From positions 270,433 to 334,432 of the forward strand of contig BDDD01000568.1 in NCBI GenBank assembly GCA_001972305.1: DNA of 64,000 nucleotides, written 5' to 3'. This document shows, one piece after another, positions 571 through 63,610 of the stretch. The notes under the pieces are model-generated. The model worked only from the letters and a program-made list of their open reading frames with translations. It had not been told where the DNA came from and did not search any database. The position numbers were made by a program, and so were the translations under genes. Positions within the stretch are counted from its first letter, which is position 1. Every line of letters starts with the position of its first letter. This DNA is from Cephalotus follicularis. Its lineage: Eukaryota > Streptophyta > Magnoliopsida > Oxalidales > Cephalotaceae.

Positions 571-840
571 AAAGCGCCGACGGTTACAATCAAAGCGTCA
601 GCGCTTTATGCCAAAAAGTCGACGCCTGAGAAGCGTGTATCTGCCATTAAAACCAGTGTAGTGCAAAATCAGTTGAAGTACTCAAAGCGGCGACGCTTGG
701 GAGTAAAGCGTCAGCGCTTTATGTCGAAGATTCGACACTGAGAACAAAGCGCCGACAGACAAAGCGAGAAAAATTCAAATTTAACTCATAACAGTAACCT
801 AAGCGCCGACGCTTTAGTCAATACCGTCGACACTTTGGAC
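571..840. repeat. Palindrome block, arm class 1 (B1 U3)
   Basis: About nine imperfect copies of AAGCGTCGACGCTT are present (for example around 571, 592, 613, 684, 703, 746, 800 and 821), with core variants GCCGAC, GTCAGC and GGCGAC. The block ends about 110 bp before the TATA box at 951. In the homologous LTRs of B2 the corresponding block uses the different arm class AGAC/GTCT. Confidence 0.8.
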
Positions 841-950
841 GGCTGGAACAATGTTAGAACTTGTTTTAAAGAGCTAACTTTGTAGCAACAACTTCCAAGA
901 CTTCTCCAACGGCTCTATTTCTTCACCAACGGCTAGAATCAAAAGAATGC

Positions 951-958
951 TATAAATA
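951..958 (+). promoter_or_regulatory. TATA box of B1 LTR promoter
   Basis: TATAAATA lies in the middle of the LTR, about 495 bp from its start, in the usual place for the U3/R boundary promoter. Transcription would start about 30 bp downstream. The call rests on position and sequence only. Confidence 0.6.
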
Positions 959-1454
959 TAAGCCAAGAAACAAGATCTAAGGACAAGGAACAACTCTTGC
1001 ACATCCAAACACAAAATCTCATCTTGCACATCTATCTACAAAGAGAAAGACATCAAGCTAGAGTTTTACATTTTCATATCCAAAGCTTACAACTAGCTAT
1101 CACTTTCATATCCAACCTTTAAGAGGTCTTTGTAAACACAAACCAATCCTTTTATCATCCATTCTAAAAGAGGGGAGTGAACCCTTGTAAGGTGTTTTAT
1201 TGATTTGCACCCGGAACCCAAAATCAAGTGTAAGGTGGTTTTGCTTTGATTTGCACCCGCAAGCCGAAATCAAAGGTTGCTAGTGGATTCTAGTGGAAAC
1301 TCAAGGGGTTCTTGAGAAAGTGGACGTAGGCACGGATTTTGCTGAACCACTATAAATCGTTTGCACACTCTCTATCCCTTATATCTTTACTTGTTATTAT
1401 TTGATTGTTTTTGTGTGGTTGTTTATATTCATAATTTAATTTGTTAATTCCGCA

Positions 1455-1942
1455 CGGATCTTATTTTTTTGGCAAGAGGTCCTAATGTAAATGGGCACTC
1501 ATGTCTACCTATCTTGATATTGTGGTTTGTCATGCACACGACTGAGGCCATGATAGAGAGAGATAGATTCCCATCCCCACTAGAGCAGGGCCTTCCTGAA
1601 TTCCACATGGGGGTATGGGATACGATTAGAATAGTGGGATTAGCCATAATTACAAAAGACCAATGGATTATGGTAATAACATTAATGGACTGTTCTGTTC
1701 ATATTCTCTCTCTCTTTTCTCATATAGGTTGCTAGATTTTCACATACTCAATAATATACTCTAATGGCAGACAGCACAAACAAATTAAACACAAATGAAA
1801 CTCCAAAGTTTTAATATCCTATTTTTCATTTAATGGAAATGCGTTTGGCATAATATTCTCACAAGCATGAGAGTCGCTCATGTCATGGGTGAGATAAACC
1901 TTGAGCTGGTGAACGATGTATCCGACCATCATAAGGATAGTT
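1455..1942. other. Unclassified sequence without a defensible gene
   Basis: This lies between B1 and LTR G. No open frame of convincing length is seen. From about 1880, a plus frame reads through to the G insertion point and continues with few stops after 5517 ('...DSWA, stop, WWDDVYRARTLTIIG...'), so it may be the remains of an old coding region split by G. I do not recognise the protein. Confidence 0.4.
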
Positions 1943-5165: not shown

Positions 5166-5239
5166 CATCTTCGTCAACTCTTAACCTTTGAAATCGACAC
5201 TTTCAACATGACATTCATCCAAAACAAATAGCCAATTTC

Positions 5240-16622: not shown

Positions 16623-16626
16623 GTCA

Positions 16627-18721: not shown

Positions 18722-18923
18722 TGTTTAGCATAAAAATGCCTTGTTTTTAATGATATATTTGTGATATTTTTAAGCTTAGAATAGACTACTTGGGTTGTGT
18801 TTATGTGATTTTCAGGTATAAGGCCAAAAAGATCCAAGTGCATAAATACAAGTCAAATTGGCATGAATTGAAGAAAAGAAGATCAAAGCTTGAAGAATGA
18901 CAAAATTCAGCAGAAAAACAGAG

Positions 18924-19190
18924 CAAAGTGTCGACGCCTAGACTTTAAGCTTCGACGCTTACACACAAAGCGGCAGCAGTCAAGAGCACAATGCCAGCGC
19001 TTTAATACATTAAGTAAACAAATCGAGTGAAGAGTCTTAAGTGCCGACGCTGTGACTGTAAACCTCGACGCTTATATATAAGGCGCTGATGGTTAATGTA
19101 TCACGTCGACGCTTAACATATTAAAGCGCGGAACATGTCAACGAAAATCACCAAACCATCGGCGCTTAAGACGAAAGCGCCGATGCTTAC
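18924..19190. repeat. Palindrome block 1, arm class 1 (A1 3' LTR)
   Basis: About ten imperfect AAGCGTCGACGCTT units are present, including 'aaagtgtcgacgcct', 'agcttcgacgctt', 'cacgtcgacgctt' and 'aaagcgccgatgctt'. The block ends 83 bp upstream of the TATA box. Confidence 0.9.
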
Positions 19191-19921
19191 GACTAAGCAG
19201 AATTGGGAAGTTTTAGATTTTTGCTAGTTTTTTAACTAGGTTATTTTCTTTCCGTTTTTAGCAGTTTTGTAGTATAAATACTTTATACACTATAAGGTCG
19301 GCCATAACAATGTGTACAAGCTAGTGACAAGCTTTGTAGCCACCCTTTTAGTTTTCTTCATTAATTCTTGTAGTTTTTATTCAATATTTAGTAGCTAAAC
19401 TTTCAAGGTTTTTAGGGTTAGAACAAAGCCTAGATTGTATTGATTCAACTCCATCAATAACAATCCTTGAAGTTTTGATTTGTTCTTCAATTTTCTACCT
19501 TCACACACACTTTGTCTGTCTGATTAAAATCCACAAACATCTTGTTAGTGAATCAGAACGTTGCTAAATGAATGGTTTTTAATGCTATCAATGGAGTCTA
19601 CTAATACGGTTTGTCACGCCGAACACACTCTGTATAGACCTAGCATGACTACTCCTACGATTTGTCGCCGCTGCCACACTCCGTATAGACCTAGCATGAC
19701 TACTCATACGGTTTTTCATCACAGTCGCACTCCGTATTGACCTAGATTCTATTGGTTATCAAGGTCTGATCAATCAAGTAAGTGAATTGTTCAATATAAT
19801 CTATGGTGAGTTTCTATAACCTAAAAATGACTTTATCTTGCATATTTTATTTTGTGTTATCTATTGCCTTGATATTTAATCGTTTTCCTAACTTAATTTC
19901 TGTTTGTTTTTTATTCAGTGC

Positions 19922-20010
19922 TATAAACGTTGACTCCTACCCTATAAGCGTCGACGCATTCCTGCTTTAAATTAATTCACGTCGATGCCTTAACAAAGCG
20001 TCGATGCCTT
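19922..20010. repeat. Palindrome block 2, arm class 1 (A1 3' LTR)
   Basis: Four units ('aaacgttgactcc', 'aagcgtcgacgcatt', 'cacgtcgatgcct', 'aaagcgtcgatgcct') lie in the U5 side. The homologous block in A4 is at 55587-55678. It is deleted from the A1 5' LTR. Confidence 0.8.
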
Positions 20011-20673
20011 CAGCTGTTGTTTCAATTAATTATTTTATTTTGCATGTTTAGGAGTAGTTTTTTATAATTTGGCTAAAATTTTATTATACTATGCTTAGGT
20101 TGAATAGATTATAACTAATTTATCTCATTTCCTAGCGTCGACCAGTTACTGCACAACCGTGCACTTGCAGTATAAATTTTATAACATTCAAAAATCAGTT
20201 AACAGTGGCTCATGTCTAAGGACCACTTACACTGCTGCTATCGAGGATGTCTGTTTGACACGTAGTAAAACTCCATATAGACATCTCTTAAGCGAGTCAC
20301 CTTCAGTGAACCCATAAAAATTTGGGCATCGACGTTTATACCATATAGTCACTACAAAATGACATGTGAGATCAGTCATCTTCTCAAACGAGCTGGTATA
20401 GGACATGTTGGTCTAACCGGATTGAGTATGCCCTGAGTACAAATCCTCTGACCAGGAAGCTTTAAGAATAAAGTTTGTCGAGGTTCCAATTCTCACATCT
20501 TGATCTCATCAACAACTTGGTCGTCCAACTCTGTTTTTAGGACATTCATTTAATTAAACATACATTAAAGCAGTAAAATGAACTCACAGCCAAGATAGTA
20601 GAAAACACATCATTATTAACTATCAAAGATAAGATTACAAGACTGTAATGGCTTGCAGGACTCATCCCTAACA

Positions 20674-21195: not shown

Positions 21196-21388
21196 TGTAA
21201 TAACCACGATTTTCTATTAATGTATATTACACAATGATTAATAAAATATGCATTATATTGAGATTTAATGTCCAATTACTTTAAAAATTGGGGTTATTGA
21301 ATTGTTGGGTTTGATTTGAAATGCAAATGTGGTGAAATACACTTAACAAACCAAAACCAGCCTAAAAAAACCGTGTGTCACAGAGTAA

Positions 21389-21450
21389 CAACCGACTATT
21401 TTGATTCAGGGAGTGACAGTCAACTGTCACAGGGCGACAATAGACTGGCC
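21389..21450. repeat. Palindrome block 1, arm class 3 (C1 5' LTR)
   Basis: Degraded units of AACAGTCGACTGTT: 'aacaaccgactatt', 'gacagtcaactgtc' and 'gcgacaatagactgg'. The better-preserved 3' LTR copy is 43543-43605. Confidence 0.65.
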
Positions 21451-22368
21451 TAGCTTAGACAGGTGTCTGTGCATGGCGTGTGAAACAGGGCAGAAGCGTG
21501 GCAATTGATGTAACATGTGTACATGGACATGTTAGCCATGCAAGGGAATCATTGCCAGCTGTTGGCAATGCAGACTGAGTGCCTTGCATGTACTCTATTC
21601 CATATGCAGACCTGCAACATGCAAAAATAGGTGAGAAAGAACAAAAGAAAGAAATGTACATGTGAGAGAGAGAAAGAAAGGAGAAGGCTGAATTAATGGG
21701 ACCTGACGAGTTCTAAGGTTTTTAAAACCTCTATATTAGCTATGAGAGTTGAATGCGAGTGTTAGAAATCACTGAGAAGATAGAGGAACTCTTGCTGAAG
21801 GAATTCTTGGAGTGCATGTTGAAGGTTTGAGTTCAAAGAGTTTTGAAGCTTTGATCTCCTGGTAAGTCACCAATCCGAGCTCATTACTAATAGTGAGATT
21901 GTAGTAATGTAACATACTGATGCTAGATACATATAACCACTGATAAACATGACTCAAGAATTATAAACCCTGAATTAGAAGGGAAATCAAGGTGGTTAAA
22001 ATGTGGAACTAGAGTAAGAGATTTCAATAAGCTACTGTTTGGAGTTATAGTTGTTATCATGACTAGATAACTAGATGAACTTACTGGTTTGATATCTAAA
22101 CATGTAACCATGAAATTGTATAGATTAACTTGCTGAAATTGGAAAGTTTGGGTGGAGTTGAGACTTGGAACTCAAAGAGAGAAATCAACTCAATTTGATT
22201 TCAGGATAGCATTTGAGGTCAGGGTTTTGACATGTTTTAGAAGATATGATATGTATAGCATGTCTGGATAATTTCTCTGTGATTGCATGTTATTATTGTG
22301 GTTTGAATTGGAAGTTGAACATGCTTACTCTATTTTGGTTAAACCACTGTCTGGAATTTCTGGACATA

Positions 22369-22486
22369 ACCAGTCGACTGTTTAACCTAACAGTCGACTG
22401 CTCAATGTAACCAACCGACTATTAGGGACAAACAGTCGACTGCTTAATGAAAATAGCCGGCTATTCTAACAACCGACTGTTAAGAG
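22369..22486. repeat. Palindrome block 2, arm class 3 (C1 5' LTR)
   Basis: Six units of AACAGTCGACTGTT type occur at spacings of about 20 bp, including 'accagtcgactgttt', 'aacagtcgactgctc', 'aaacagtcgactgctt' and 'aacaaccgactgtt'. The 3' LTR counterpart is 44525-44642. Confidence 0.9.
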
Positions 22487-23783
22487 ACAAATTATAGATA
22501 TTAGCTGATGTTAGGCTTTAAATTGTATGCAATTACCCTGGCCTCCACATGGGATGATTGTAACAGTCAATCCTGGCCTTGTGTAGTTACATTACAGAAA
22601 GTAAACAACTTAGGCAGTCATTGTGAGAGTTGTGCAAGAATGACTAGGGTATACTAACATCTTATTTGAACCCTTGAATTTTGATTGTTCCGTTGCTGTT
22701 TAATGATGCTGTTACAGATACTGTATAGCTATTAAGTGTTCATAAATACTATTGTTACACTTAATATTAATGATTGAACCAACTAGTACTACAAGCACAA
22801 ATATGGATTTTCTTCTAATTGTTTTCAAAAGGAAAACTGATTGTCAAAGGAGTTACTGATTTTCCTCCCACGAGAGGCACAACTACTTATTGAATACCGT
22901 TTCCTCCAAATGAGAGGCACGGTCACTGAACTGTTAAACGTTTCAAAAAGAAAACAACTATTATATTGCATATTATAGATATATGTAATTTTACTATTGA
23001 ATTGATTGAATTGTTTGTCTATGTTATTGCCGTTAGTTGAGTGATAGGAGACATCACTGGCTACGGGGTGGTCCTATGTGCCAGGAGTTGGCTAGAACTT
23101 CCACCACACTTATCTGCAATGCAGATCCTGATTCTTACCTGCCCGCTAAATACTGGCAGAATTGACCTGATCTATCATCTTTGGAGTGTAGGGTGATAGT
23201 TTGGTGGTGGGCAATTGGTGCTAGGAGTTAGCGACATGTGACACCCAAACCACTGTATTGATTGATTTTACCCTTGTGTGGTATTCTTGAATTTTATTGT
23301 CTATGGCCACTTGGCGTGATTGCTCAAATTTATTGAAGTACTTATTTATATATGCTATTTCAAAAATAAATTGTCATACATGTTTACATTTATATATTCT
23401 TTCTCATGCTTTATTCCTACTTATCCAAGTGAGGACAACGGCTAACCCTCTACAATTTCAGATTAAGTGAAGGCGTTCGGGGAAGTGCTGTTGAAGCTTA
23501 TTCGAGAGCTTCTATCTTGTTAAGGTTGTTATTCACTATGTTTTGTATTGAACTGAACGATCATACTCCGTTGTTGTTGTTTTACATTTCCAATATGTAA
23601 AAGGATAGTTGTTAGTATTGTATAAGCACGTAGTATGGGTTGTGTGTGGATAATTTTTATAATCCGACAATGGAATGCTTCCGCTTATATTAATGAAATT
23701 TCGTTTAATGTTGAATGCTGGATTATTATTTATAACTGATATCACCATATATGTTGTCATGTGGAGAACGGGGTGTGACAACA

Positions 23784-25067: not shown

Positions 25068-25213
25068 TGTAATAACTGCAAATTCAATTCGTGTACATTG
25101 TAATATTGATGAATAAAATGTGCACTTACTTGAATTTGATGTCCAATTATTATACGGTTGTGGTTGTTAGTTTATTTGAACAAATGGGACTAAAATAACT
25201 ATAAAAAAAATAG

Positions 25214-25280
25214 CCATCGACATCCGACTGTCATAGGGGAACAGTCGACTGTCTGATGCGTGGTATGACAGTCGACTGGA
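25214..25280. repeat. Palindrome block 1, arm class 3 (C2 5' LTR)
   Basis: Units 'gacatccgactgtc', AACAGTCGACTGTC and 'gacagtcgactgga'. The 3' LTR counterpart is 36205-36295, which keeps one extra unit lost here. Confidence 0.85.
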
Positions 25281-28305: not shown

Positions 28306-28466
28306 AAGGCGTCGACGTCTTTCACTAGACGTCGATGTCTATTCCCCTTTTTACACGTGAGGGTCGATGCCTTTGCCTACATCGACGTGCATGTACACAT
28401 GCATTCACGTGTGCCTTTGCTTCCATAGGCGTCAACGTCTTTCCAAAGACATCGACGCGTTTTCCG
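28306..28466. repeat. Palindrome block, arm class 2 (F1, U3-side)
   Basis: Units 'aggcgtcgacgtcttt', 'agacgtcgatgtct', 'gggtcgatgccttt', 'aggcgtcaacgtcttt' and 'agacatcgacgcgt'. The counterpart in F2 (63456-63610) is class 3, so both blocks differ together between the two LTRs. Confidence 0.85.
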
Positions 28467-40963: not shown

Positions 40964-40968
40964 TGATG

Positions 40969-43372: not shown

Positions 43373-44524
43373 TGTAATAACCGCAATTTTCAATTAATGT
43401 ATATTACATAATGATGAATAAAATATGCATTATATTGAGATTTAATGTCCAATTACTTTATAAGTTGGGGTTATTGAATTATTGGGTTTGATTTGAGATG
43501 CAAATGTGGTTAAATACACTCAACAAACCAAAACCAGTCTCAAACAGCCGACTGTTTTGATTCAGGGAGTCACAGTCGACTGTCACAGGGCGATAGTCGA
43601 CTATCCTAGCTCAGACAGGTGTATGTGCATGGCATGTGAAACAGGGCAGAAGTGTGGCAATTGATGTAACATGTGTACATGGACATGTTAGCCATGCAAG
43701 GGAATCGTCGCCAGCTATTGCCAATGCAGACCGAGTGCCTTGCATGTACTCTATTCCATCTGCAGACCTGCAACCTGCAAAAATAGGTGAGAAAGAACAA
43801 AAGAAAGAAATGTGCATGTGAGAGAGAGAGAAAAAGGAGAACGCTGAATTAATGGGACCTGACAAGTTCTAAGGTTTTAAAAACCTCTATATCAGCTGTG
43901 AGAGTTGAATGCGAGTGTTAGAAATCACTGAGAAGATAGATGAACTCTCGCTGAAGGAATTCTTGCAGTGCATGTTGAAGGTTTGAGTTCAAAGAGTTTT
44001 GAAGCTTTGATCTCCTGGTAAGTCACCAATCCGAGTTCATTACTGATAGTGAGGTTGTAGTAATGTAACATACTAATGTTAGATACATATAACCACTGTT
44101 AAACATGACTCAAGAATTATAAACCTGGATTTAGAAGGGAAATCAAGTTGGTTAAAATGTGGAACTAGAGTAAGAGATTTCAATAAGCTACTGTTTGGAG
44201 TTATAGTTGTTATCATGACTAGATAACTAGATGAACTTACTGGTTTGATATCTAAACATGTAAACGTGCAATTGTATAGATTAACTTGCTGAAATTGGAA
44301 AGTTTGTGTGGAGTTGAGACTTGGAACTCAAAGAGAGAAATCAACTCAATTTGATTTCGGGATAGCATTTGAGGTTGGGGTTTTGACATGTTTTAGAAGA
44401 TATGATATGTATAGCATGTCTGGATAATTTCTCTGTGATTGCATGTTATTATTTTGGTTTGAATTGGAATTTGAACATGCATACTTTGTTTTGGTTAAAC
44501 CACTGCCTGGCGTTTCTGGACAAA

Positions 44525-44642
44525 AACAGTCGACTGTTTAACCTAATAGTCGATTGCTCAATGTAACCAGCCGACTGGTAGGGACAAACAGTCGACTGCT
44601 TAATGAAAACATTCGGCTTTTCTTATGAACAGCCGACTGTTA
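44525..44642. repeat. Palindrome block 2, arm class 3 (C1 3' LTR)
   Basis: Six units: AACAGTCGACTGTT, 'aatagtcgattgctc', 'accagccgactggta', 'aacagtcgactgctt', 'aacattcggctttt' and 'aacagccgactgtt'. The spacing matches the 5' LTR copy, with independent point changes. Confidence 0.9.
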
Positions 44643-46016
44643 AGAGACAAATTACATATATTAGCTGCTCTTAGGCTTTAAATTATATGCAATTACCCTG
44701 GCCTCCACATGGGATGATTGTAACAGTCATTCCTGGCCTTATGTAGTTACATTACAGAAAGTAAACAACTTATGCGCTCCTTGTGAGAGTTGTGCAAGAA
44801 TGAGTAGGGTATACTAACATCTTTTTTGAACCCTTGAATTGTGATTGTTCCGCTTCTGTTTAATGATGCTGTTACAGATACTGTATAGCTATTAAGTGTT
44901 CATAAATACTATTGTTACACTTAATATTAATGGTTGAACCAAGTAGTACTATAAGCACAAATATGTATTTTCTTCTTATTGTTTTCAAAAGGAAAACTTA
45001 TTGTCAAAGGATTTATTGATTTTCCTCCCACGAGAGGCACAACTACTGTATTGAATACCGTTTCCTCCAAACGAGAGGCACGGTCACTGAACTGTTAAAC
45101 GTTTCTAAAAGAAAACAACTACTATATTGCATATTATAGATATATGTAATTTTACTATTGAATTGATTGAGTTGTTTGTCTATGTTATTGTCGTTAGTCG
45201 AGTGATAGGAGACATCACTGGCTATGGGGTGGTCCTATGTGCCAGGAGTTGGCTAGAGCTTCCACCACACTTATCTGCAATGTAGATCCTGATTGTTACC
45301 TGCCTGCTAAATGCTGGCAGAATTGACTTGATCTATCATCTTCGGAGTGTAGGGTGATAGTTTGGTGGTGCGCAGTTGGTGCTAGGAGTTAGCGACATGT
45401 GACACCCAAACCACTGTATTGATTGATTTTGCCCTTGTGCGGTATTCTTGAATTATATTGTCTATGGCCACTTGGCGTGATTGCTCACATATATTGAAGT
45501 ACTTATTTATATATGCTATTTCAAAAATAAATTGTCATACATGTTTACATTTATATATTCTTTCTCATGCTTTATTCCTACTGAGCCAAGTGAGGACACG
45601 GCTAACCCCCTACAATTTCAGATTAAGTGAAGATGTTCGGGGAAGTGTTACTGAAGCTTATTGGAGAGCTTCTATCTTGTTAAGGTTGTTATTCACTATG
45701 TTTTGTATTGAACTGAACGATCATACTCCGTTGTTGTTGTTGTTTTACATTTCCAATATGTAAAAGGATAATTGTTAGTATTGTATAAGCACGCAGTATG
45801 GGCTGTGTGCGAATGTTTAGCATAAAAATGTGTTGTTTTTAATGCATTATTTGTGATACTTTTATGCTTGGAATAGACTACTTTGGTTGTGTTTTAATGA
45901 TTTTCAGGTACAAGTGTTAAATCACCAAAGTGCAAGAATACTACCCAAAAGTGTGCAAAATTAGAGTTAAAAGTGTAAAGATTGAGGAATCAACAAATTC
46001 TGCAGAAAACATCTTT

Positions 46017-46400
46017 CAAGAAGACGTCGATGTCTTTGCTTGCTTTGATCAAACGCATTGATGTCTTCCATTAAAATCGATGTCTTTTCTTAGTTTATAC
46101 AATCACGTCGACGCCTTTCCAGATGAAGTCGACGTCTTTTCTGTAAAATGCACCAATCTTCAAAGGAGCTATGAAAAAGAAGTCGACGTCTTTTTAAAAG
46201 AAGTCGACGCCTTTCATGCAGACCGACGTCTTTCACACAACACATCGATGTCTTTGAACAAAATTGTCCTGTAACTTTTGACCAAAAGACGTCGACGCCT
46301 TTCAAGAAGAAGTCGACGCCTTTCTCTCGCATTTTAGCAAAGTCGCGATTTTTACACAAAGAAGTCGACGCCTTTCAGAAAGAAGTCGACATCTTCCTCT
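46017..46400. repeat. Palindrome block, arm class 2 (A3)
   Basis: About fourteen units of (A/G)A(A/C)GTCGACG(C/T)CTTT type occur in 384 bp, eight with exact core GTCGAC. The block ends 82 bp before the TATA box. In the other Athila LTRs the block at this position is AAGCGTCGACGCTT (class 1). Confidence 0.9.
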
Positions 46401-46769
46401 GCAGCAGAAATAGAAAGTTCAGATTTTTGCCATATTTTGTAACTAGGATTACTTTTATTCCGTTTTTGATCAGTTTTGTAGTATAAAAACAATGCTATGG
46501 CCGGCAGAAACAGTATGTAGAAGGTAGTGTAGTGTAGAAACAATCCTAATTTCTTTTCATCGATTTAATTTTCTTCACAATGTTTAGTAGCTAAACCTTT
46601 TAAGGTTTTGTGGAAGAACAAAGCCTAGATTGTTATTGTTTCAATTCCATCAATAAAAATCCTTGAATATTTGATTTGTTCTTCAATATTTCTGCCTTCA
46701 CACACAATTTGTCTGTCTGATTAAAATCCACAAACATCTTGTCGGTGAAGCTTAAAGATTGGCGAATAA

Positions 46770-47084
46770 ATGGTGTTCAATTCAACGGAGTCTACTCATA
46801 CGATTTGTCGCAACGAACACACTTCGTATAGACCTAGCATGTCTACTCATAAGTCTTGCCGCCGTTATCGTTGCCGTACTTCGTATAGACCTAGCATGAC
46901 TACTCATACGCATTGTCATCACCGCCGCACTCCGTATAGACCTAGCTCTCGTTGTTTATCAAGGTATGATCGTTCAGCTACATGGAATTGTTCAGTACAA
47001 TCTACGGTGAGTTTTTATACCCCAAAACCGTTTCTTTACTATATTTTCTCTTTACTTTTATTCATTGCATGTTTTATTTCTTAG
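46770..47084 (+). CDS. Small LTR ORF with 17-residue Cys/His repeats (A3)
   Basis: This 104-codon ORF has three CH-rich 17-residue units ('TICRNEHTSYRPSMSTH', 'RCRTSYRPSMTTH', 'HCHHRRTPYRPS') followed by a hydrophobic tail. Relative to A1 and A4 it has a 3-bp-multiple insertion and stays in frame. Function and expression are unknown. It may be only a DNA-level tandem repeat. Confidence 0.35.
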   Translation: MVFNSTESTHTICRNEHTSYRPSMSTHKSCRRYRCRTSYRPSMTTHTHCHHRRTPYRPSSRCLSRYDRSATWNCSVQSTVSFYTPKPFLYYIFSLLLFIACFIS

Positions 47085-47447
47085 TCTTTTAAATTCAACG
47101 CTTTTACTTATCGAAGTTTTAATTTCTAGTTTTGTTTATTTATTTTATTTTGCCTAATTAGGAGTAGTTTTTAATAATTTATCCCAAATTCAGTATACTT
47201 CGCCTAGGTTGAATAAATTATAACTAGTTTACGTTTCCCTGAGTTCGACCTGTTACTGCATGATCCGTGCACTTGCGGCTATAAATATTAAAACATTCTA
47301 AATACGTGAACAACGAATAATTTTCATAATCCGGCAATGGAATGCTTCCACTTATATTAATGAAATTCCGTTTAATGTTGAATGCTGGATTATTATTTAT
47401 AAATGATATCACCATATATGTTGTCATGTGGAGCACGGGGTGTGACA

Positions 47448-48408: not shown

Positions 48409-48565
48409 TGTTTAGCATAAAATTATATTTTTATGCTTCGAATATACTACTGCTATTGTGTTTGATTGATTTTCAGGAACAAGAGTCAAAAGATTAAAGT
48501 GCATGAAGAATGGCTCAAATTGGTAAAAATTGAAGAAAAAAGTTCAAATTTGCAGAATTTGCACT

Positions 48566-48763
48566 GAAAGCGTCGACGCCATCAACATAAGCATCGATGC
48601 CTGGACCCAAAGCGCTGGCGGTTTCAAAGGAAGTGTCGACGCTTAACACTAAAAGCTAAATAACGCAAGATACGAGCCGACGCTTAGCGCATTCAACATA
48701 TCAAAGCGTCGACGCCAAACGCCAAACTGTCGACGCCCAAGACATAAGCGTCGACGCTTACGA
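48566..48763. repeat. Palindrome block 1, arm class 1 (A4 LTR)
   Basis: Units include 'aaagcgtcgacgcc', 'aagcatcgatgcct', 'aagtgtcgacgctt', 'aaagcgtcgacgcc' and 'aagcgtcgacgctt'. The block ends 88 bp before the TATA box. Confidence 0.85.
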
Positions 48764-49013
48764 TGCCTGACAACAAATTTGGAAAGTTTCATATTTTTGC
48801 TAGTTTTGTAACTAGGTTATTTTCTTTCCGTTTTTTAGCAGTTTTGTAAGTATAAATACATTATAAGGCCGGTTATAACAATGTGTACAAGCTAGTGACA
48901 AGCTTTGCCACCATTAGCCGCCTTCTTCTTCTTCAATTTTTGTAAGCTTATTTCAAAGTTTAGTAGCTAACTTTTCAGGGTTTTTAGGGTTAGAAAAAAG
49001 CTTAGATTGTATT

Positions 49014-50293
49014 TGAAATAAAACACTCTTGCAATATACAAGAGGGGGGGTGTATTGAATATTGAAGTAAATATGAAAATTTAAAAACTTTTAAATGTAA
49101 ATAGACAAGGAAGGAAAAACTTCTCCGATTTTAGAGTGGTTCGGCTAACTCTTGCCTACGTCCACTTTTCCCAAGGGAGCTCCTTGAGTTTCCACTATCT
49201 TGATTTGATTAAGGCAGCAAATCGTTACACCTCACAAATTCGTGATTGACCTCAATCACAAGACTTTGACCTCAAAGCCTTAGAGGATTCTCCTCTTTTA
49301 CAGGTAAAATGAAAGTGTTTACAAGAACCTCTTAAATAGGTTGATGTGAATAAATATAACTCACAAAATGAAACACTCAGATACACTCAAAGAATGAAGC
49401 TTAGAAGCCTTGTTGAACAATGTAGAGCACTTTGAGCTTTTTGCACACTAGAATGCTTGAATTGGATTTCTCTTGATGTTTGTGTGATTGATGTAGATAA
49501 TTATGAATTGTTGTTATTCTTATGAGGTTTCATGCTTCCTTTTATAGCCAAAAAAGATTTGTAGCCGTTGCTTAATTTGTGGAAGCTTTTGATTTAATAA
49601 TGTGAGTTGCAATTATTGAATTTTTTCTCTGCTGGTATAAAGACGTCGACTTCTTTATGAAAGGCATCGATGTCTTTTCGGTTGGTAGCCATTGGAAGTG
49701 GTTGAACTAGCCGTTCCAGCTTTCCCGGGTCTTGTTTGCTTGAAAAGGCGTCGACTTCTTTTGGAAGGCGTCGTTGTCTTTTCTGGGAAATCTCCAGAGC
49801 ATCAGTCTTTGAACATCACGTCGTCTTCTTCTTTGGAGTCGATGCATTTTCTGGGAATTGCAGGTGGCTATGAAAATGGCGTCGATCTCTATTGAAAGGT
49901 GTCGATGTCTTCTGCTTTGACTTCGATGTCTTTTGTTTAAGGATCGATGTCTTTGATTGCAATTTCATACAGTAGCTTCTGGTTTAAAAAATGACTAAAA
50001 ACGTCAATGTTATCTCGGAAGTAGTCGATGTCATCTTGAAAGTAGTCGACGTCTTTTTGAAGTAGTCGATGTCTTTTGGTACGGACGTCGATGCCATTAC
50101 TGGAAGGACGATGTTTTCTTTGTAGTTAATCTTGTACTAAAGACGTCTATGCTATTTTTGAAAGAGTCGACTTCTTTTTCTGCAGATGGTATATTGCTTT
50201 GATTTTGAACTTGTAATTCCTTGCACATTAAGTAAATTAGTTAAATGCAAATATGTTATCATCAAAACAAGGATTGAGACTAAATCGTCAACA
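49014..50293 (-). mobile_element. B2 3' LTR
   Basis: The minus-strand start TGTTGACGATTTAGTC is at 50293, adjacent to the polypurine tract (50294-50307). A minus-strand TATAAAA lies at 49540-49546. A class 2 palindrome block is at 49641-50177, whose near end is about 95 bp from the TATA box. Confidence 0.95.
49641..50177. repeat. Palindrome block, arm class 2 (B2 3' LTR)
   Basis: About sixteen units of AGACGTCGACGTCT type, mostly written here as '(G/A)GCGTCGATGTCTTT' or 'AGTCGA(C/T)GTC'. At least ten of the differences between the two B2 LTRs fall in this block, often at CpG positions. Confidence 0.9.
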
Positions 50294-50896: not shown

Positions 50897-52193
50897 TCAA
50901 GATTCAGCAGGAGCAGCAGGAGAAGTAGGAGAAGAGACATCGGATCCAGATTCATCGCCCGAAGTTTCTTCACATCGATCAATGGTCTTCGATTCGGTGA
51001 GCTTCCGTTCCATTCGTTTGAGACGCCTCTTTGTGACTTTTAAATCATAAAAGATGGTGTCATCAACGTGTCGGAAGTCAGACTGAAGTACCCTATGATC
51101 AGCTCTCAATCGACCGAGCTGAGTCTTGATATCCTTAATTTCATCTATGAAGGAGGACTTCATGGCAGCAAATTGAGCTTGCATAAACTTCATCATCCGG
51201 TCATACTCAGTGGAGAATGAGGAGCCTTGAGCAGGGTGCTGAGCAGGGGTAGGGGCAGTTTGAGCTTCCCAAGGAGGGTTGTCCTCTTGCTCTTCCCGTG
51301 CAATCCTTTGAGCTTGATCCGCTTTGGGCACATATGTCCAAATCCCATCCTGTTTCTTCCATCCCATTCGACTTCGTAGAGATCTCTCCTTCAAGCGGAA
51401 TATGACAATGTAGGAAGACTAGGGTAAGAATGGATCCGTAAGGAAGAACGGATTTCTTTTGAGAAAATGCTCTTACCATTGTCTTGAGCATTAAGAGAGG
51501 GAAACAAAACTCGATTTTCGATAGGATGCACCACATAATAAAAACTTGCATCCTAGACAATTTGGCATACCCTCCACCGGTGGGTAGAATTTGATGCACG
51601 ATGAGATGGTGGAGAAGCCTATGATCAACAGACAATCGGTTAGTTGTCAGAGCCATGTTTGGATGAATATTTGGATCGTTGGGATACAAAACCGATAGAA
51701 TTTGGTTAGGGTGAAAACCCTCAACCTCCGGCCATTTTTTATGTTCAAAGACATATATACCGGTATGTGGAATGTGAAGGATAGAAGCTAGAATCCTAGC
51801 ATCTAGATATATCCGTTGGCCTTTAACAACTGAGGTGATTGCAAATTCCTCATTTTGAGCCGAAACCATTTTTAGGTTAGAATAAAAATCTTTAACCAAT
51901 TTTATGTAAAAAGGGTTAGAGATTTGAACTAAAGGAAGAAGATGTAGGTCATCTAACCAGGAAACGAAGGAGAATTCGGAAGAACAGAAATCAAAATCGA
52001 TGTTTCTGCCTCCCATGACTCGTTTTTCAACAAAACTCACACTTCTAATAGGGACAGGCTCTTCTGATGAGGAATCAGAATGAGAAGACTCATAGGAAGA
52101 TTCCCTAAGCTCTAATCTCTGCTTCTTAGCAGATTTCTTGGGTTGAGAAGACGAGGCAGCCTTCTTTTTGGTAGGTTGCTTTGTCCTCGGCAT
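50897..52193 (-). pseudogene. B2 ORF2, resembles 'putative plant transposon protein' family, one frameshift
   Basis: A start at 52193 gives MPRTKQPTKKK, then a basic and acidic Ser-rich N-terminus. The middle region has 'NPFYIKLVKDFYSNL', 'SVVKGQRIYLDARILASILHIP', 'RLLHHLIVHQILP' and 'MWCILS'. It resembles the plant family Pfam lists as a putative plant transposon protein (PF20167), by recognition and not by search. Near 51390-51410 the frame shifts and the homologous tail continues to 50897 ('KKQDGIWTYVPKADQAQR', a probable coiled coil, a Ser/Glu-rich end). It occupies the place of pol or env-like genes. Confidence 0.65.
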
Positions 52194-52424
52194 TTCTACA
52201 AACAGATTGTGAGCACAAGGGGAAAAACACACAGAGTGATACAAAAAGTGAATTGGACAGACGAAAAACGGTGTTGGAGAATAGAGAAGAGATAAGAGTA
52301 TGATTTACGATCAACTAGAAAGATTTTTGAAGAAAAACTGAGTGATAGAAATTTTTTTGAAAACACAGAAGAGAGAGGGCAAGTGAAGAATGAACAAAAG
52401 ATCGAATTTTTATGAAGAAGTCGA

Positions 52425-52685
52425 GATTCTAAGCAAAAGACGTCGACGTGATTCTAAAAGGAGTCGACGCGATCTTAAAATATGGCTGTAAAAATGGTGC
52501 GTTTTAAAAAGCATCGACATATTTGAAAAGAAGTCGATGTGTTTTAGAGAAACACATAGGGATCGACGTTTTTCAAGAGATGTCGACGGCATTTTCATAA
52601 GATACGAGTTTTTCCAGAAAAGAAGTCGACTCTGTTTTGCAAAGCATAAAAAATTCCAGAAAAGGAGTCGACGTTTTTCAATGCT
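52425..52685. repeat. Internal palindrome block, arm class 2 (between B2 gag and ORF2)
   Basis: About nine units: 'agacgtcgacgtga', 'ggagtcgacgcgat', 'agcatcgacatatt', 'gaagtcgatgtgttt', 'gatcgacgttttt', 'atgtcgacggca', 'gaagtcgactctgt' and 'ggagtcgacgttttt'. It lies outside the LTRs yet uses the same arm class as the LTRs of this element. Confidence 0.85.
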
Positions 52686-52740: not shown

Positions 52741-53725
52741 TTATGCAATTTCTTGGTCTTCTTCTTCTTCATCGGAACTTGATTCATCACTATCCGACCA
52801 AGTGGCAAGCATGGCTTTCTTCTTTTTGATAGTGTCTTTTGCTTTCTTCAATCTTGGACATTCACTCCTGTAATGTCCGGGCTTGTTGCATTCGAAACAA
52901 ACAATATCTTCTTTCTTTGTTTCGGATTTTGATGGGAATGTCTTCTTGAATTGTTTGTTCCCAAACTTTTTCTTTGCAAGGTACTTCTTGAATCTCCTTG
53001 TGATTAGAGCCATTTCATCATCACTTTCTTCTTCACTTGAGTCCGGTGTAGAGGACTTGAACGCAATGACTTTCTTCTTCTTTTTATCTTGTTCTTCTTC
53101 AACCTCATGATTTTTGATGGTCATTTCATGCATCATGAGTGATCCAAGGAGTTCGTCAAGTGGCAATATGTTGAGGTCTTTAGCTTCCTCTATGTCTGTA
53201 ACTTTAGGCATCCAACTTTTAGGTAGACACCTAAGAATCTTTCTTACCATTTCGCTATTAGTGTAGCATTTATTCAAAGATTGTAAGGAGTTAATGATAT
53301 TTGTAAATCTAATAAACATACCAAAAATATTTTCGTTTTCCTTCATAGAGAACATTTCGTATTCTCTTACAAGCATATTTATTTTTGCATCCTTGACTTG
53401 GTTGGTACCTTCATAGGTAACCTCTAATCTATCCCACATTTCTTTTGCGGTTGCGCAAGAAGATACTCTATTAAATTCATTTGAATTTAAAGCACATATT
53501 ATAACGTGTTTTGCTTTAGCGTTTAGTTGTACCTTTTTGCGATCATCATCCGTATAGGAGCTTCTCGGTTTGAGAGTTTTTATACCTTCTTGTGAGATGA
53601 TGTGAGGAAGTTCCGGGCCCTCGATAATGATGTCCCAAAGGTTGAAATCAAGAGCTTGAATAAAGATAGTCATCTTTGCCTTCCAATGACTATAGTTGTT
53701 TCCATCGAAGAATGGAGGCTTTGAT
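52741..53725 (-). pseudogene. gag: B2 copia gag, nearly intact, 5' end disrupted
   Basis: The open frame runs from an ATG at 53673 to 52741 (310 residues). It contains a UBN2-type gag domain ('LDFNLWDIIIEGPELP', 'CATAKEMWDRLEVTYEGT', 'LVREYEMFSMKENENI', 'LRCLPKSW') and the zinc knuckle CFECNKPGHYRSEC, then an acidic Ser-rich tail. Conserved residues 'PPFFDGNNYSHWKAKM' lie upstream of this ATG in the same frame, to about 53720, but no start codon is found there, so a frameshift or lost start is likely. Gag would let a pol-less element be packaged if a relative supplies enzymes. Confidence 0.85.
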
Positions 53726-53804
53726 GGACATGCTTTCCTTGTTCGACATATTCAATTCCATAAGGATCTTTGTAATCTCTAACAGTTAAGAAATAAGATT
53801 AACC

Positions 53805-53816: not shown

Positions 53817-53818
53817 AT

Positions 53819-55098
53819 TGAAATAAATCACTCTTGCAATATACAAGAGGGGGGGGTGAATTGAATATTGAAGTAAATATGGAAATTTAAAAACTTTAAA
53901 TGTAAATAGACAAGGAAAGAAAAACTTCTTCGATTTTAGAGTGGTTCGGCTAACTCTTGCCTACGTCCACTTCTCCAAAGGGAGCTCCTTGAGTTTCCAC
54001 TATCTCGATTTGATTAAGGCAGCAAATCGTTACACCTCACAAATTCATGATTGACCTCAATCACAAGACTTTGACCTCAAAGCCTTAGAGGATTCTCCTC
54101 TTTTACAGGTAAAATGAAAGTGTTTACAAGAACCTCTTAAATAGGTTTATGTGAATAAATATAGCTCACAAAATGAAACACTCGGATACACTCAAAGAAT
54201 GAAGCTTAGAAGCCTTGTTGAACAATGTAGAGCACTTTGAGCTTTTTGCACACTAGAATGCTTGAATTGGATTTCTCCTGATGTTTGTGTGATTGATGTA
54301 GATAATTCTGAATTGTTGTTATTCTTCTGAGGTTTCATGCTTCCTTTTATAGCCAGAAAAGATTTGTAGCCGTTGCTTAATTTATGGAAGCTTTTGATTT
54401 AATAATGTGAGTTGCAATTATTGAATTTTATCTCTGCTGGTATAAAGACGTCGACTTCTTTATGAAAGGCGTCGATGTCTTTTCGGTTGGTAGCCGTTGG
54501 AAGTGGTTGAACTAGCCGTTCCAGCTTTCCCGGGTCTTGTTTGCTTGAAAAGGCGTCGACTTCTTTTGGAAGGCATCGATGTCTTGTCTGGGAAATCTCC
54601 AGAGCATCAGTCTTTGAACATCACGTTGTCTTCTTCTTTGGAGTCGATGCATTTTCTGGGAATTGCAGGCGGCTATGAAAATGGCGTCGATGTCTATTGA
54701 AAGGTGTCGATGTCTTTTGCTTTGACGTCGATGTCTTTTGTTTAAGGATCGATGTCTTTGATTGCAATTTCATACAGTAGCTTCTGGTTTAAAAAATGAC
54801 TAAAAACGTCGATGTTATCTCGGAAGTAGTCGATGTCATCTTGAAAGTAGTCGACGTCTTTTTGAAGTAGTTGATGTCTTTTGGTACGGACGTCGATGCC
54901 ATTACTGGAAGGACGATGTTTTCTTTGTAGTTAATCTTGTACTAAAGACGTCGATGCTATTTTTGAAAGAGTCGACTTCTTTTTCTGCAGATGGTATATT
55001 GCTTTGATTTTGAACTTGTAATTCCTTGCACATTAAGTAAATTAGTTAAATGCAAATATGTTATCATCAAAACAAGGATTGAGACTAAATCGTCAACA
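53819..55098 (-). mobile_element. B2 5' LTR
   Basis: Same ends and length (1,280 bp) as the 3' LTR. A minus-strand TATA box lies at about 54345-54351, and a class 2 palindrome block at 54446-54982. It is followed on the right by the target duplication GTATT. Confidence 0.95.
54446..54982. repeat. Palindrome block, arm class 2 (B2 5' LTR)
   Basis: Same units as 49641-50177. Several are closer to the consensus here ('aaggcatcgatgtct', 'tgacgtcgatgtcttt', 'aaacgtcgatgtta'). Confidence 0.9.
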
Positions 55099-55223
55099 GT
55101 ATTGATTCAAATCTATCAATAAAAATCCTTGAAATTTTCATTTGTTCTTGAATTTTCTACCTTCACACACACTTTTGTCTGTTTGATTAAAATCCACAAA
55201 CACTTTGTCGGTGAATAAGAACG

Positions 55224-55448
55224 TTGTTGAATGAATGGTTTTTAACGCAATCAATGGAGTCTACTCATGCGGTTTGTCACGCCGAACACACTCCGTATAG
55301 ACATAGCATGTCTACTCATACGATTTTTCACTGCTGCCACACTCCGTATAGACCTAGCATGACTACTCATACGATTTGTCATCACAGTCGCACTCCGTAT
55401 CGACCTAGCTGCCTTTGGTTATCAAGGTTTGATCAATCAAGTAAGTGA
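55224..55448 (+). CDS. Small LTR ORF with 17-residue Cys/His repeats (A4)
   Basis: This 74-codon ORF carries CHAEHTPYRHSMSTHTI, 'FHCCHTPYRPSMTTHTI' and 'CHHSRTPYRPS', then LWLSRFDQSSK. It is the best-preserved of the four copies. Directly after it comes 'caagtaagtg', a possible splice donor. Coding status is uncertain. Confidence 0.4.
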   Translation: MLNEWFLTQSMESTHAVCHAEHTPYRHSMSTHTIFHCCHTPYRPSMTTHTICHHSRTPYRPSCLWLSRFDQSSK

Positions 55449-55586
55449 GTTGTTCAATATAACCTATCGTGAGTTTCTATTCCCTAAAACCGCTTTTATC
55501 TTGCATGTTTTATTTACTATTATTTATTCATTTGTTAGTTGATAAATTGCATGTTTAATTTCTGTTAATTTTCAATTTAGTACGCA

Positions 55587-55678
55587 TAAACCGTCGATGC
55601 CTACCCTATAAGCGTCGACGCTTTCATTGTTTGAAGTCATACCGTTGACGCTTAGTGACAAAGCGTCGACACCTTTCT
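55587..55678. repeat. Palindrome block 2, arm class 1 (A4 LTR)
   Basis: Four units: 'aaaccgtcgatgcct', 'aagcgtcgacgcttt', 'taccgttgacgctta' and 'aaagcgtcgacacctt'. It corresponds to 19922-20010 in A1. Confidence 0.8.
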
Positions 55679-55876
55679 TTTTTGTTTTTTTAAATATAAT
55701 TTATTTCTTGCATATTTAGGAGTAGTTTTTAATAATAAACCTCAATTTTGCATACTTCACCTAGGTTGAATAGATTAAAATTAATTTATCTTGTTTCCTA
55801 GCATTCAACCCGTTACTGCACAACCGTGCATTTGCGGTTTAAATTTTAAAACATTCAAAAATAGCGAACAAGTTTT

Positions 55877-60090: not shown

Positions 60091-61238
60091 ACCCTAGCCT
60101 TCCATTGCTGGATGCAATTGCTCAGGTGCCCTCTTACACAAAAGTCCTAAAAGACTTATGCACTAAAAAGAGGATCCTTCAAACTCCAAAAAAGGCTTTC
60201 TTGGCAGCCAACATCACTGCAATTATTTCGCAACCGAAGATTCCAAAGTATAAAGTTCCTGGATGCCCGACAATCTCTTGTGTCATCGGCAACACCAAAA
60301 TTGAATATTCTTTGCTTGATCTAGGAGCAAGTGTGAATTTGTTGCCTTCTTCTGTTTTTGAGAAACTTGGTTTAGGAGAGTTGCACCTGACCACAATGAC
60401 TTTGCAATTAGCTGATAGGTTGGTGAAAGTACCGAGAGGGAAAATTGAGGATGTGTTAATCAAGGTTGGTGAGTTTTTCTTTCCTGTCGACTTTGTCGTG
60501 TTAGATACCCAGCCTATAGTGAATATCAAAGATCAAATCCCAGTTATCCTCAGTAGACCATTCTTGGCCACAAGTAATGCTTTGATCAATGGCCGAAATG
60601 GTCTTATGAAGTTGAGTTTTGAAAAGTCATCAATGGAATTTAACATTTTTCGCTTAGGAAAGCATCCAGCTGACTTCGATGAAGTCTACGTGATACATTC
60701 GATTCCTGACACTCTTGACACGTATTTTGACGTCAACTTTGATCGCGACTTCATTGAGTGTATGAGGGAATTCAAGGAAACGGAAGCTACCCAAAAGGAA
60801 ATGGTAACGTGGTTGGAAAATGAGATTACTGAGCCAACTTCGGATAGTGAATGGGATCATTTATCCCATTACATGCACAAACTTGCCACGCCTGACCAAA
60901 CGTACTTTGACAAAGATTTTGATAGAGACTTCATGGAATGTGTAAGGGAATTCAAGGAATTAAAGGTCATGCAAAAGCAAATTCTTTGTTGTTTGGATGA
61001 TGGGATCATTGATTCCACTTCGGATAGTCAATGGGACGATCTGTCCCATTTCACTCACAAGCTTAGCACGCCATCTCACCCTCACACCACCCTCAAAAAT
61101 AACATTTTCTCTACTAAAGATCAAATAGGATGGAGGTATGCATTATCAATGATCAGATGTTTGACCACTGGCTGGTTGGCCACAACTATTTTGGTTCTCT
61201 TGATGGATTCTATTGGTGGAGATTGTGTTGGGACGGAT
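60091..61238 (+). pseudogene. Athila-like protease with tandem acidic repeats (A4), open but truncated
   Basis: About 380 residues are open from the 'PSLPLLDAIAQVPSY' segment to the F2 insertion. The retropepsin site is LLDLGASVNLLP, followed by 'FEKLGLGELHLTTMTLQLAD', 'FFFPVDFVVLD' and 'ILSRPFLATSNALING', the complete Athila protease order. Two modules of about 60 residues follow (60716-60894 and 60895-61075), each with 'TYFD..FDRDF.ECMREFKE', 'QKE' and 'SDS.WD.LSH..HKL'. RT is not reached. The protease matures gag in the particle. Confidence 0.75.
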
Positions 61239-62405
61239 TGTCACGCCCCCATTCCAAAGAAAGCAACGTTAAAGCAGCAAGGCAAAAAACACAACATAAT
61301 TCAGCTTATGCGATATAACGTATAAACAAAAACTTTCAGTAGCGGAAGCAATAACATGAAGTAAGCTGAATTAAAATACGTATCACACATCCCATACTAC
61401 GTGATACCCACAGAGTTTATATAAAACCCAACATCATTGTTGATCGCCCATAAACGGAGCGTGATGATACAGTACGAAATAAAATAAACCCAAGTTACAA
61501 AAATCCAGTTACATAGTCATTGTTCAATAATCCAGTACATAAAAATAAGAGCAACAGCTTAGTCCTCTCCTTAAGTCTCCTTGCGTGCTCCATATCAAAA
61601 CCCACTCCATAATTCTATTACAGTAGGGGGTTAGCCTTTGTTCTCACTCGGCTAAGTAGAAAAGTTCATGTATACAGTTCAAGGTCAAGGTAATGCGTAT
61701 CATGAATGAATGCATAGTGATGCAACATGACATGTAATTTTCACAGTAATTATATCTCCGTATTTACAAATAAAAACATATGCATCTTCACAGTACAGGT
61801 ATAACCTCATAAGGTTATATCAAACACAGGTAGTAAGTATATCCCAAAAAAAGAACCAGACAAGCAGGTTGTCATAACCGTCGCCACCTCCTGGCCCCAA
61901 CGTCATGCACTCTTACCCCATTCCTGTTTGCGAACGGTTTGGAGCAAGTCCTCCGTATGTTGCTTAGCACGACGGCTAAACCAACAGCAGGTTACTAGCA
62001 CAGCGGCTGAGTAATCAAGAGGTTACAAACACAGTACAATACAAGTAAAGCAACAAAATATGATTACTTGATCAAAATATATTTGTTTAAAATATATTAC
62101 TCCATTATCAGGTTGTTATAAGTTGTAATACTTAAAACAATACATTTCTCTGTCTTTGGGAATACTCCCCCAGTCATTTGAAAATCTAAGTTTATATTTG
62201 TCAAATATACATTTTCTTACCCAAAATGATTATAATAATCATGCAAGTTTTCCAAGATGGTTAATACATTCAGTAATCAACCACAATCAATTTACAGTAC
62301 AGTAGCAGTTCAAATGCAGGGCAAACATATGCTCAGAATGCACCTAGGGTTGTTGGTAATTAACCTAGGCCTATCACCTTTTCTAAAGGTCCAATTTCTG
62401 CTGTA

Positions 62406-62635
62406 ACAGTCGACTATTTTTCCATAACAATCGGCTGGATCCTTGAGTCAGTCGACTGTTCTTCCCCAACAGTTGACTTGTTCATCATAAGTAATCAGTA
62501 GTCGGTTGTCTTCCTTCGACAGTCGACTGTTCTGGGCAAAAAAGCATGCACAGTCGACTGTTCTTACTTGACAGTCGGCTGGATGATCGAGTAGTCGACT
62601 GTTTTACTTAAATAGTCAGCTGTTCTGGGCTGGAC
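62406..62635. repeat. Palindrome block, arm class 3 (F2, U5-side)
   Basis: About eleven units, five with exact core GTCGAC: 'aacagtcgactatt', 'aacaatcggctgga', 'tcagtcgactgttc', 'aacagttgacttgt', 'gacagtcgactgttc', 'cacagtcgactgttc', 'gacagtcggctgga', 'gtagtcgactgttt' and others. F1 has class 2 units at this position. Confidence 0.9.
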
Positions 62636-63455
62636 AGTACCAATAATTCACTTCTAAATCCATTCAACAAGCAATTGAAACTTATCCACACGTATTCAGA
62701 CCCCAGAATATCACCAGTAGTCATATCATGGTCTAAAATACAACTCAATTCATACATTGTTCTCCGTTTTCATCATAATTCAAATGAAATCCAAACATGG
62801 TATTGCATGAAAACCAATCCATAACTCCATCCAAAATTCAGTGTGCATGTCAGGTTATTTATTAACAGTAACCACAACATTAATACAGAAATCCACAGCC
62901 AAACAACTACAACATACATTAATAACATCATTACTCTTAAACTCAAAATGCATGCATAGAATTCTCTACTATTTCCCCTACCTTTGATTTCATTTTAGAA
63001 ATCGAAAGTCCACCTCTTTGTGTTTCCTTTCCAGTATCTTTGAGCCTCCCAGTGGCTCCAAGAATAGCCCAATAGATCCAATCCGAGCTCCAAGCTTAAC
63101 AATGGAGAATCCTCTCAATTCTCACTATCTTCACTCTCAATTTCTCACTATCTTCTCTCTCAATTTCTCTGATTCATTCTTATCAGATTGCAGGGTGAGA
63201 GAGATGAATGGGAGAGAGCATTTATGCAGTCCTCTCTTCCTCAACTCGTTTTGCATGGCACTAAGGGCCCTTCTCTCTCATTATCACTTGCATGCACACA
63301 CACTTGTCACTCTTTCTCTTCCCCTCTGTCCTTGCAGGTCCTGGCGTGGTGGTGCATGCTCAACACGTCTTATTGCATGTGATAGCTTCTGAAGATGCTC
63401 TTCCCTTGTCAGTTTGCATGTGATTTTGCCATTTGTCTAAAAACCAGAGCATGAA

Positions 63456-63610
63456 CCAGTCGGCTGCCCTTCCCCGGCAGTCGGTTGTTCACCTGGAAGT
63501 CTGTTGCCAAGTGTCACGACAGTTGGCCAGTCGACTGGTTCCTCACGCCAGTCGACTGCCCCACACCTCAGCCTAACAGTCGGCTGGTATATCGCACCAG
63601 TCAGCTGTCC
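63456..63610. repeat. Palindrome block, arm class 3 (F2, U3-side)
   Basis: Units: 'accagtcggctgcc', 'ggcagtcggttgttc', 'gacagttggccagtcg', 'gccagtcgactggtt', 'gccagtcgactgcc', 'aacagtcggctggt' and 'accagtcagctgtcc'. Same arm class as the second block of this LTR. Confidence 0.9.

What the first reader, a model, noticed from the sequence alone, without database searches (positions are those of the whole stretch)
571..63610. Unrelated LTR retrotransposon families share clusters of GTCGAC-core palindromes with four alternative arm classes
Seen directly: dense clusters of imperfect palindromes with core GTCGAC occur in copia B (571-840, 49641-50177, 54446-54982), Athila A (13037-13283, 18924-19190, 46017-46400, 48566-48763), Tekay C and F, LTRs E and G, and copia D. 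The arms are symmetric and fall into classes: AAGC/GCTT, AGAC/GTCT, AACA/TGTT and TGA/TCA. A 6-bp core is expected once per 4 kb, yet A3 has eight exact cores in 384 bp and A1 has five in 247 bp. The families are not related by descent in their LTRs, so the core must be convergently gained or actively exchanged. Inference: a trans-acting factor family recognises a constant core plus variable arms. An analogy is the short-motif arrays read by VANC anti-silencing proteins of Arabidopsis VANDAL transposons, where motifs also diversify between families.
Basis: partly seen in the sequence, partly recalled or inferred. Interest (0 to 1): 0.92.

Follow-up and report, generated by a model that had tools for sequence, protein, structure and literature searches.

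The report
Retrotransposons sharing binding sites of self-encoded regulator
In the pitcher plant Cephalotus, jumping genes carry rows of short mirror-image DNA sites, also in front of a gene whose predicted protein shape resembles a known transposon-made protein that fights silencing, and unrelated jumping genes carry similar sites.

The parts
458..1200 (+). Sirevirus-like copia LTR (starts TGTTGACTTTTAGTC; its end was not determined) with an array of AAAGCG-NNNN-CGCTTT-like sites at 571-831 and TATAAATA near 951
   Evidence: PPT AAAAAGGGGGAGATTG at 444 and sequence read by eye; the same repeat flanks a copia gag in L010
12837..14022 (+). Athila A 5' LTR; array 13044-13277 (class AAGC), TATA at 13367
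   Evidence: LTR pair with 18722-20204, TG...CA ends, TATA
18722..20204 (+). Athila A 3' LTR with an array of the same class, partly decayed
45814..47312 (+). Athila A3 LTR fragment; flanks homologous to A1, but the array 46107-46390 is of the copia B class; TATA at 46482
48425..49012 (+). Athila A4 LTR fragment, array 48572-48755 (class AAGC), interrupted by copia B
55099..55862 (+). Continuation of the Athila A4 LTR behind the copia B insertion, sites 55614 and 55665
21196..23646 (+). Tekay-type C repeat unit holding the first LTR (inner end not determined), CAGTCGACTG sites 22373-22440
43373..45809 (+). Second copy of the C unit, sites 43575-43601 and 44529-44596
25068..29545 (+). Tekay-type F first LTR, interrupted by other sequence, sites 25244-25276 and 29170-29238
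36060..37711 (+). Tekay-type F second LTR, sites 36235, 37336, 37378
49013..50293 (-). copia B 3' LTR, array 49645-50171 (class AAAGAMGTCGACKTCTTT), TATA at about 49546; PPT AAAAAGGGGGAGAT at 50307
53818..55098 (-). copia B 5' LTR with the same array (54450-54976); PBS with TATCAGAGC at 53813
52741..53751 (-). copia B gag (Retrotran_gag_2, zinc knuckle)
   Evidence: Pfam
52442..52672 (-). Internal array of five exact GTCGAC plus variants between gag and the Transposase_32 ORF: putative promoter array of that ORF
51207..52304 (-). Transposase_32 (PF20167) frame, start codon at 52193; the C-terminal part lies in another frame at 50897-51418 (frame broken in this copy)
   Evidence: Pfam 72 bits; relatives
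62409..63556 (.). CAGTCGACTG arrays 62409-62599 and 63530-63556 in repeats not delimited here

Best explanation
The palindrome arrays are binding-site arrays of a retrotransposon-encoded, VANC-like DNA-binding protein. Sirevirus-type copia elements carry its gene, Transposase_32 (PF20167), in the env-like position behind pol; a third clade sits in elements not yet typed. Arrays lie upstream of that gene and in the LTRs of the same elements, in several LTRs just before a TATA box. Inferred: a dimer reads inverted half-sites, dimers stack at ~21-bp steps on one face of the helix, and binding activates or de-silences both the LTR promoter and the protein's own gene. Protein clades and motif classes diversified together. 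Unrelated Ty3/gypsy LTRs (Athila, Tekay) gained arrays of these or similar classes and so use, or parasitise, such factors in trans. Shown: arrays, spacing, positions, clade-specific motifs, promoter/LTR agreement, purifying selection in one clade, a fold match to VANC21. Not shown: binding, dimerisation, activation, demethylation.
Confidence: 0.57

Rival explanations
1. Host transcription factors (for example AP2/ERF proteins of the DREB/CBF type, recalled to bind RYCGAC) read the arrays; elements use the same host factor for the LTR and for their internal gene, and unrelated families converged on it.
For: GTCGAC and GCCGAC fit RYCGAC (recalled, from no call); both are enriched. Bousios et al. 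2010 found mainly stress-factor sites among Sirevirus palindromes and suggested stress regulation (section read). Convergence on a host factor easily explains sharing between copia and gypsy.
Against: One clade uses CGTTAACG, CGTCAACG and CGTTGACG (79 upstream sites), which such a factor should not read (recalled specificity); the motif follows the Transposase_32 clade; arms rarely mix; the adjacent gene has a VANC21-like model in one clade.
Confidence: 0.27
2. The palindromes matter mainly as RNA hairpins that feed siRNA production (host recognition), as proposed for maize Sireviruses.
For: Two arrays fold more stably than shuffles, z -4.2 and -3.2. Maize palindrome clusters attract small RNAs (PMC10760457, passages read).
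Against: Gives no reason for the 21-bp steps, the place before some TATA boxes or the clade-specific arms, nor for elements keeping core CpGs; it may be a side effect.
Confidence: 0.08
3. The arrays in gypsy LTRs were copied from copia elements by recombination or template switching and have no function there.
For: The Athila A3 array and copia B arrays share many short matches, the best about 40 bp at 90%.
Against: The best matches are many-to-many rather than one colinear block; Athila A1 and A3 arrays keep the position before the TATA box. Copying does not exclude function.
Confidence: 0.07

Closest known systems
Palindromic repeated motifs (RM) of Sirevirus LTRs (Bousios et al. 2010, PMC2829016; sections 9 and 19 and passages read)
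   Same: High-copy palindromes in the LTR upstream of the TATA box and, in env-bearing elements, upstream of the env-like gene (77 of 79 linker copies); the grape element has CGGTCGACCG, which contains this core.
   Different: There 12 of 13 motifs have a CGG-CCG signature, the motif is called Sirevirus-specific among the copia elements compared, and no binding factor was found. Here the core is mostly GTCGAC, arrays also lie in gypsy LTRs, steps are ~21 bp, and the gene behind the array is named and, in one clade, fold-matched.
VANC anti-silencing proteins of VANDAL transposons (Hosaka et al. 2017, PMC5735166; passages read)
   Same: Element-encoded protein, short motifs accumulated in noncoding regions, motif diversified with the protein, unrelated element AT9TSD1 sharing VANC6 motifs; predicted fold match to VANC21.
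   Different: VANDALs are Mutator-like DNA transposons; YAGTATTAY is not a palindrome; binding and loss of methylation were shown there, not here; no sequence similarity detected here.
Additional (env-like) ORFs of plant LTR retrotransposons, including a sunflower Athila ORF with PF20167 similarity (PMC11728184, passages read; review PMC7264820, passages read; survey PMC6317226, one passage)
   Same: Same Pfam domain (sunflower), in an additional ORF of an LTR retrotransposon.
   Different: Function not known there; the passages seen make no link to palindrome arrays.
Maize palindrome CACCGGACNNNGTCCGGTG shared by Copia elements and Helitrons (PMC10760457, passages read)
   Same: One palindrome class found in unrelated transposon types.
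   Different: Other core; [quoted passage not shown]

Membership tests
Sirevirus (Ty1/copia), for copia B and L015-type elements | Polypurine tract followed by AT and the TG of the 3' LTR, with several PPT copies upstream | tested here: met
   AAAAAGGGGGAGAT|TG at copia B 50307 and at 444; several PPT-like copies seen by eye in L042. One PPT each was looked for in the window
Sirevirus (Ty1/copia), for copia B and L015-type elements | PBS TATCAGAGC next to the 5' LTR | tested here: met
   copia B, window 53813, minus strand; not tested for L015-type elements
Sirevirus (Ty1/copia), for copia B and L015-type elements | env-like gene directly behind pol | tested here: met
   L015: RVT_2 frame 3018-4079, then array, then PF20167 frame; pol ends read by eye before the array in L045, L052 and L064. 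The window copy of copia B lacks pol there: gag is followed by array and gene
Sirevirus repeated motif | CGG-CCG signature of the palindrome | tested here: not met
   Core is GTCGAC, CGTYRACG or GCCGAC
VANC | fold of VANC21 | tested here: inconclusive
VANC | sequence similarity to VANC proteins | tested here: not met
   No VANC chain among PDB sequence matches with two alignments and one protein; VANC sequences outside the PDB were not compared
VANC | encoded by a VANDAL/Mutator-like transposon | tested here: not met
   Copia B and L015 clades lie in copia elements; the MPKTKH-clade elements were not typed
VANC | arrays of a short motif in noncoding regions of the element, diversified between families | tested here: met
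VANC | protein binds the motif and causes loss of DNA methylation | not testable with these tools
   needs EMSA, ChIP or bisulfite data
Retroviral-type envelope protein | transmembrane segment | tested here: inconclusive
   Highest 19-residue hydropathy 1.4 to 2.0 in six proteins, three above 1.6; no dedicated predictor used

The most novel reading that the evidence does not exclude
The env-like genes of plant Sireviruses are not envelopes but VANC-type sequence-specific anti-silencing factors; palindrome arrays are their address codes, read by dimers in helical register. Codes are traded between unrelated retrotransposon families, so that gypsy elements hitch-hike on copia-encoded anti-silencing, and code switching (Athila A1 to A3) is how families change allegiance. 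Similar Sirevirus palindromes in grasses, grape and citrus would be the same system.
Probability: 0.42. Interest if true: 0.95.

Novelty: new variant of a known kind. Interest (0 to 1): 0.86.

Why it matters
What reads the Sirevirus palindromes, and what the additional ORFs of plant LTR retrotransposons do, are left open in the passages read. A named protein with a named site per clade makes both directly testable. If right, anti-silencing by element-encoded factors is not peculiar to Mutator-like elements but works in abundant copia elements too, and families share and swap its address codes.

Tried and rejected
Chance or composition: rejected by dinucleotide models and reversed-pattern controls. 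Simple tandem copying of a 21-bp unit: 7-base spacers are a little more alike within arrays (0.35, n=15) than between loci (0.27, n=334); copying is not excluded, n is small. Of 16 fetched MPKTKH-clade loci, L005 was dropped because its array belongs to a Tekay-type LTR inserted in the gene, L002 because almost no upstream sequence is held, and L036 because the start pattern did not match, though one search shows an array there. L037 (the L015 locus) was left out of the LTR fit; it has no exact site behind the gene. A hAT link of Transposase_32 in L016 (hAT-like RNase-H 26.4 bits, cut-off 27; the Transposase_32 match there is 28.2 bits, cut-off 45) found no Pfam support in L005 and is left open; the search for L016 relatives did not complete, nor was that for Athila ORF-1, PF03078. 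The class B arm pattern was mis-spaced and says nothing. First AlphaFold run uninformative, pLDDT 42, pTM 0.20. In one search most rows below VANC21 match the C-terminal helix. C1:56000-58100, tried as the inside of an AACA-class element, gave no frame over 90 aa and no Transposase_32 match. Genome-wide counts of the chimera AACAGTCGACGCTT and of AAGACGTCGACGTCTT did not complete, so chimera scarcity rests on the 187 local sites. The 20 sample stretches were my choice from large contigs that carry Transposase_32 hits, not a strict random draw; 6,712 of their 200,000 bases are N. Foldseek itself was not run.
Full report
WHAT WAS CHECKED. The window has 70 exact GTCGAC, against 15.6 for a uniform sequence and 5.7 from its dinucleotides; no other palindromic 6-mer is as enriched. 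The window lies in contig C568 of a 1.577-Gb assembly. All 120 listed (of 396) relatives of its Transposase_32 protein are named Cephalotus follicularis, and P0121, 100% identical to the L015 protein over 82% of it, lies on a contig of 1,404,558 bases, the length of C493, where L015 was taken; so the genome is that of the Australian pitcher plant. In 20 further 10-kb stretches (193 kb without N) GTCGAC occurs 136 times against 16.0 expected; 19 of 20 stretches have it. Genome-wide, AACAGTCGACTGTT occurs 11,812 times (reversed control 25) and AAGCGTCGACGCTT 18,108 times (control 15).

ANATOMY OF THE ARRAYS. Of 113 neighbour distances up to 150 bp (window plus 20 stretches, LTR twins included), 46 are 19-22 bp, 15 are 40-43 and 5 are 61-65, while only 7 fall in 7-18 or 23-39 and 15 in 44-60. 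All-pair distances also peak at 49-50, 70-71, 91-92 and 112-113, which are not multiples of 21. The highest-scoring period is 10.25 bp (36.8), but 24 bp (36.0) and 7 bp (33.0) are close, so the reading 'one face of the helix, two turns apart' rests on the 21, 42 and 63 peaks and is an inference. The delimited LTR units hold 47 of 70 window sites in 16.3 kb, 2.9 per kb against 0.48 elsewhere. Of nine LTRs or units scanned, the two copia B twins, Athila A1 and Athila A3 have an array ending 95-104 bp before a TATAAA box; the Athila 3' LTR (decayed), the three Tekay units and L011 do not show this. Arms are dyad-symmetric to position 4, and CA|TG with C|G half-sites meet in one of 187 sites. Centres vary as well. 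So the unit looks like inverted half-sites with a preferred TCGA centre rather than a fixed core with free arms.

WHERE THE ARRAYS LEAD. In copia B (minus strand) an array of five exact sites lies between gag (52741-53751) and a frame with the Pfam domain Transposase_32 (51207-52304). PF20167 is an enormous family here: 13,073 first-look candidates, 150 scored, all 150 above the cut-off. Two of the 20 sample stretches hold a PF20167-like gene with an array in front (L015; and L016, 28.2 bits, below the cut-off of 45), and a third (L011) holds a gene fragment inside an element whose LTRs carry arrays. In L015 the order is copia pol, array, PF20167 gene: the place of the env-like gene of Sireviruses. 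Fetched promoters: copia B clade 20 of 20 with sites, 110 in all; L015 clade 18 of 20, 47 in all; MPKTKH clade 13 of 13 scored, with CGTYRACG at 13.4 per kb against 0.22 in the sample. The host elements of the MPKTKH clade were not typed. In L016 the array core is often GCCGAC.

CLADE AND MOTIF GO TOGETHER. Weight matrices were made from the promoters of one clade only and applied to other sequences. The stretches behind the gene in five further L015-type elements (L038-L042; LTR start and PPTs read by eye in L042) prefer class A at 39 of 39 sites. The sixth, L015 itself (L037), has no exact site there. The copia B LTR fits B and rejects A. Among gypsy LTRs, Athila A1, A2 and A4 fit neither (two sites in the A4 continuation score 4.2 for B), but Athila A3, whose flanks align with A1 at 75-77%, fits B as well as copia B itself. 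So within one gypsy family the array is of another, copia-type class. The matches between A3 and copia B are short and many-to-many, so stepwise gain and short transfers are both possible. Each broad class has a copia user and a gypsy user: AAGC in the copia LTR at 458 (the same repeat flanks a copia gag in L010, 58% identical to copia B gag) and in Athila A1; B in copia B and Athila A3; CAGTCGACTG in L011/L015 elements and the Tekay units. The third pairing is loose: Tekay sites score only -1.5 to 5.4 bits for class A.

SELECTION. In the MPKTKH clade the PF20167 gene has dN/dS 0.10-0.17 in the 11 pairs that include the divergent L001 (dS 1.08-1.46; the pairs share L001); the median of all 65 scored pairs is 0.62, as expected if most close copies drift. 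Core CpGs agree in 84% (class A) and 91% (class B) of copy pairs, other CpGs of the same pieces in 29% and 57%. The core definition demands more matching bases, which favours it somewhat, but the gap is large.

PRIOR KNOWLEDGE. Bousios et al. [quoted passage not shown] the grape motif is CGGTCGACCG. PF20167 similarity was seen in a sunflower Athila additional ORF, and a 2026 paper raises the question whether such ORFs modulate the epigenetic state, citing VANC (passages). A meeting report mentions unpublished VANC-DNA structures (passages). The listings of my ten paper searches showed no title or abstract start that ties PF20167 to the palindromes; the library lacks most subscription journals, and Bousios et al. 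2016 was not held.

VERDICT. Observation confirmed and widened. Most likely mechanism: an element-encoded, VANC-like regulator with clade-specific palindromic sites, co-opted by unrelated families. Direct binding is the missing step.

Noticed in passing
L016:1288-5452: A PF20167-like gene piece preceded by a GCCGAC-core array follows hAT-like transposase frames on the same strand (both Pfam matches below cut-off); PF20167 may also ride in a hAT DNA transposon.
   Followed up: partly
L021:5710-8047: Six of eight sites of the copia B class in a repeat without a listed match to the copia B or Athila LTRs of the window; perhaps a further user family.
   Followed up: partly
window 14729-14835: Rfam match snoR71 (41 bits, threshold 40) in the Athila internal region, minus strand; possibly chance or a captured snoRNA.
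   Followed up: no
window 3523-3900: Two copies of a 185-bp stretch, 100% identical, at 3523-3707 and 3716-3900, each with a GTCGAC.
   Followed up: no
window 30234-30252: Two TGA/CGA-GTCGAC-TCA palindromes 13 bp apart, a different spacing and arm class; a similar pair 13 bp apart in L026 at 6687-6705.
   Followed up: no
L011:1-826 and 4473-5319: One LTR has GTTGAC or GTCAAC where its twin has GTCGAC: core decay by apparent CpG deamination, suggesting that the arrays are methylated in the germ line.
   Followed up: partly
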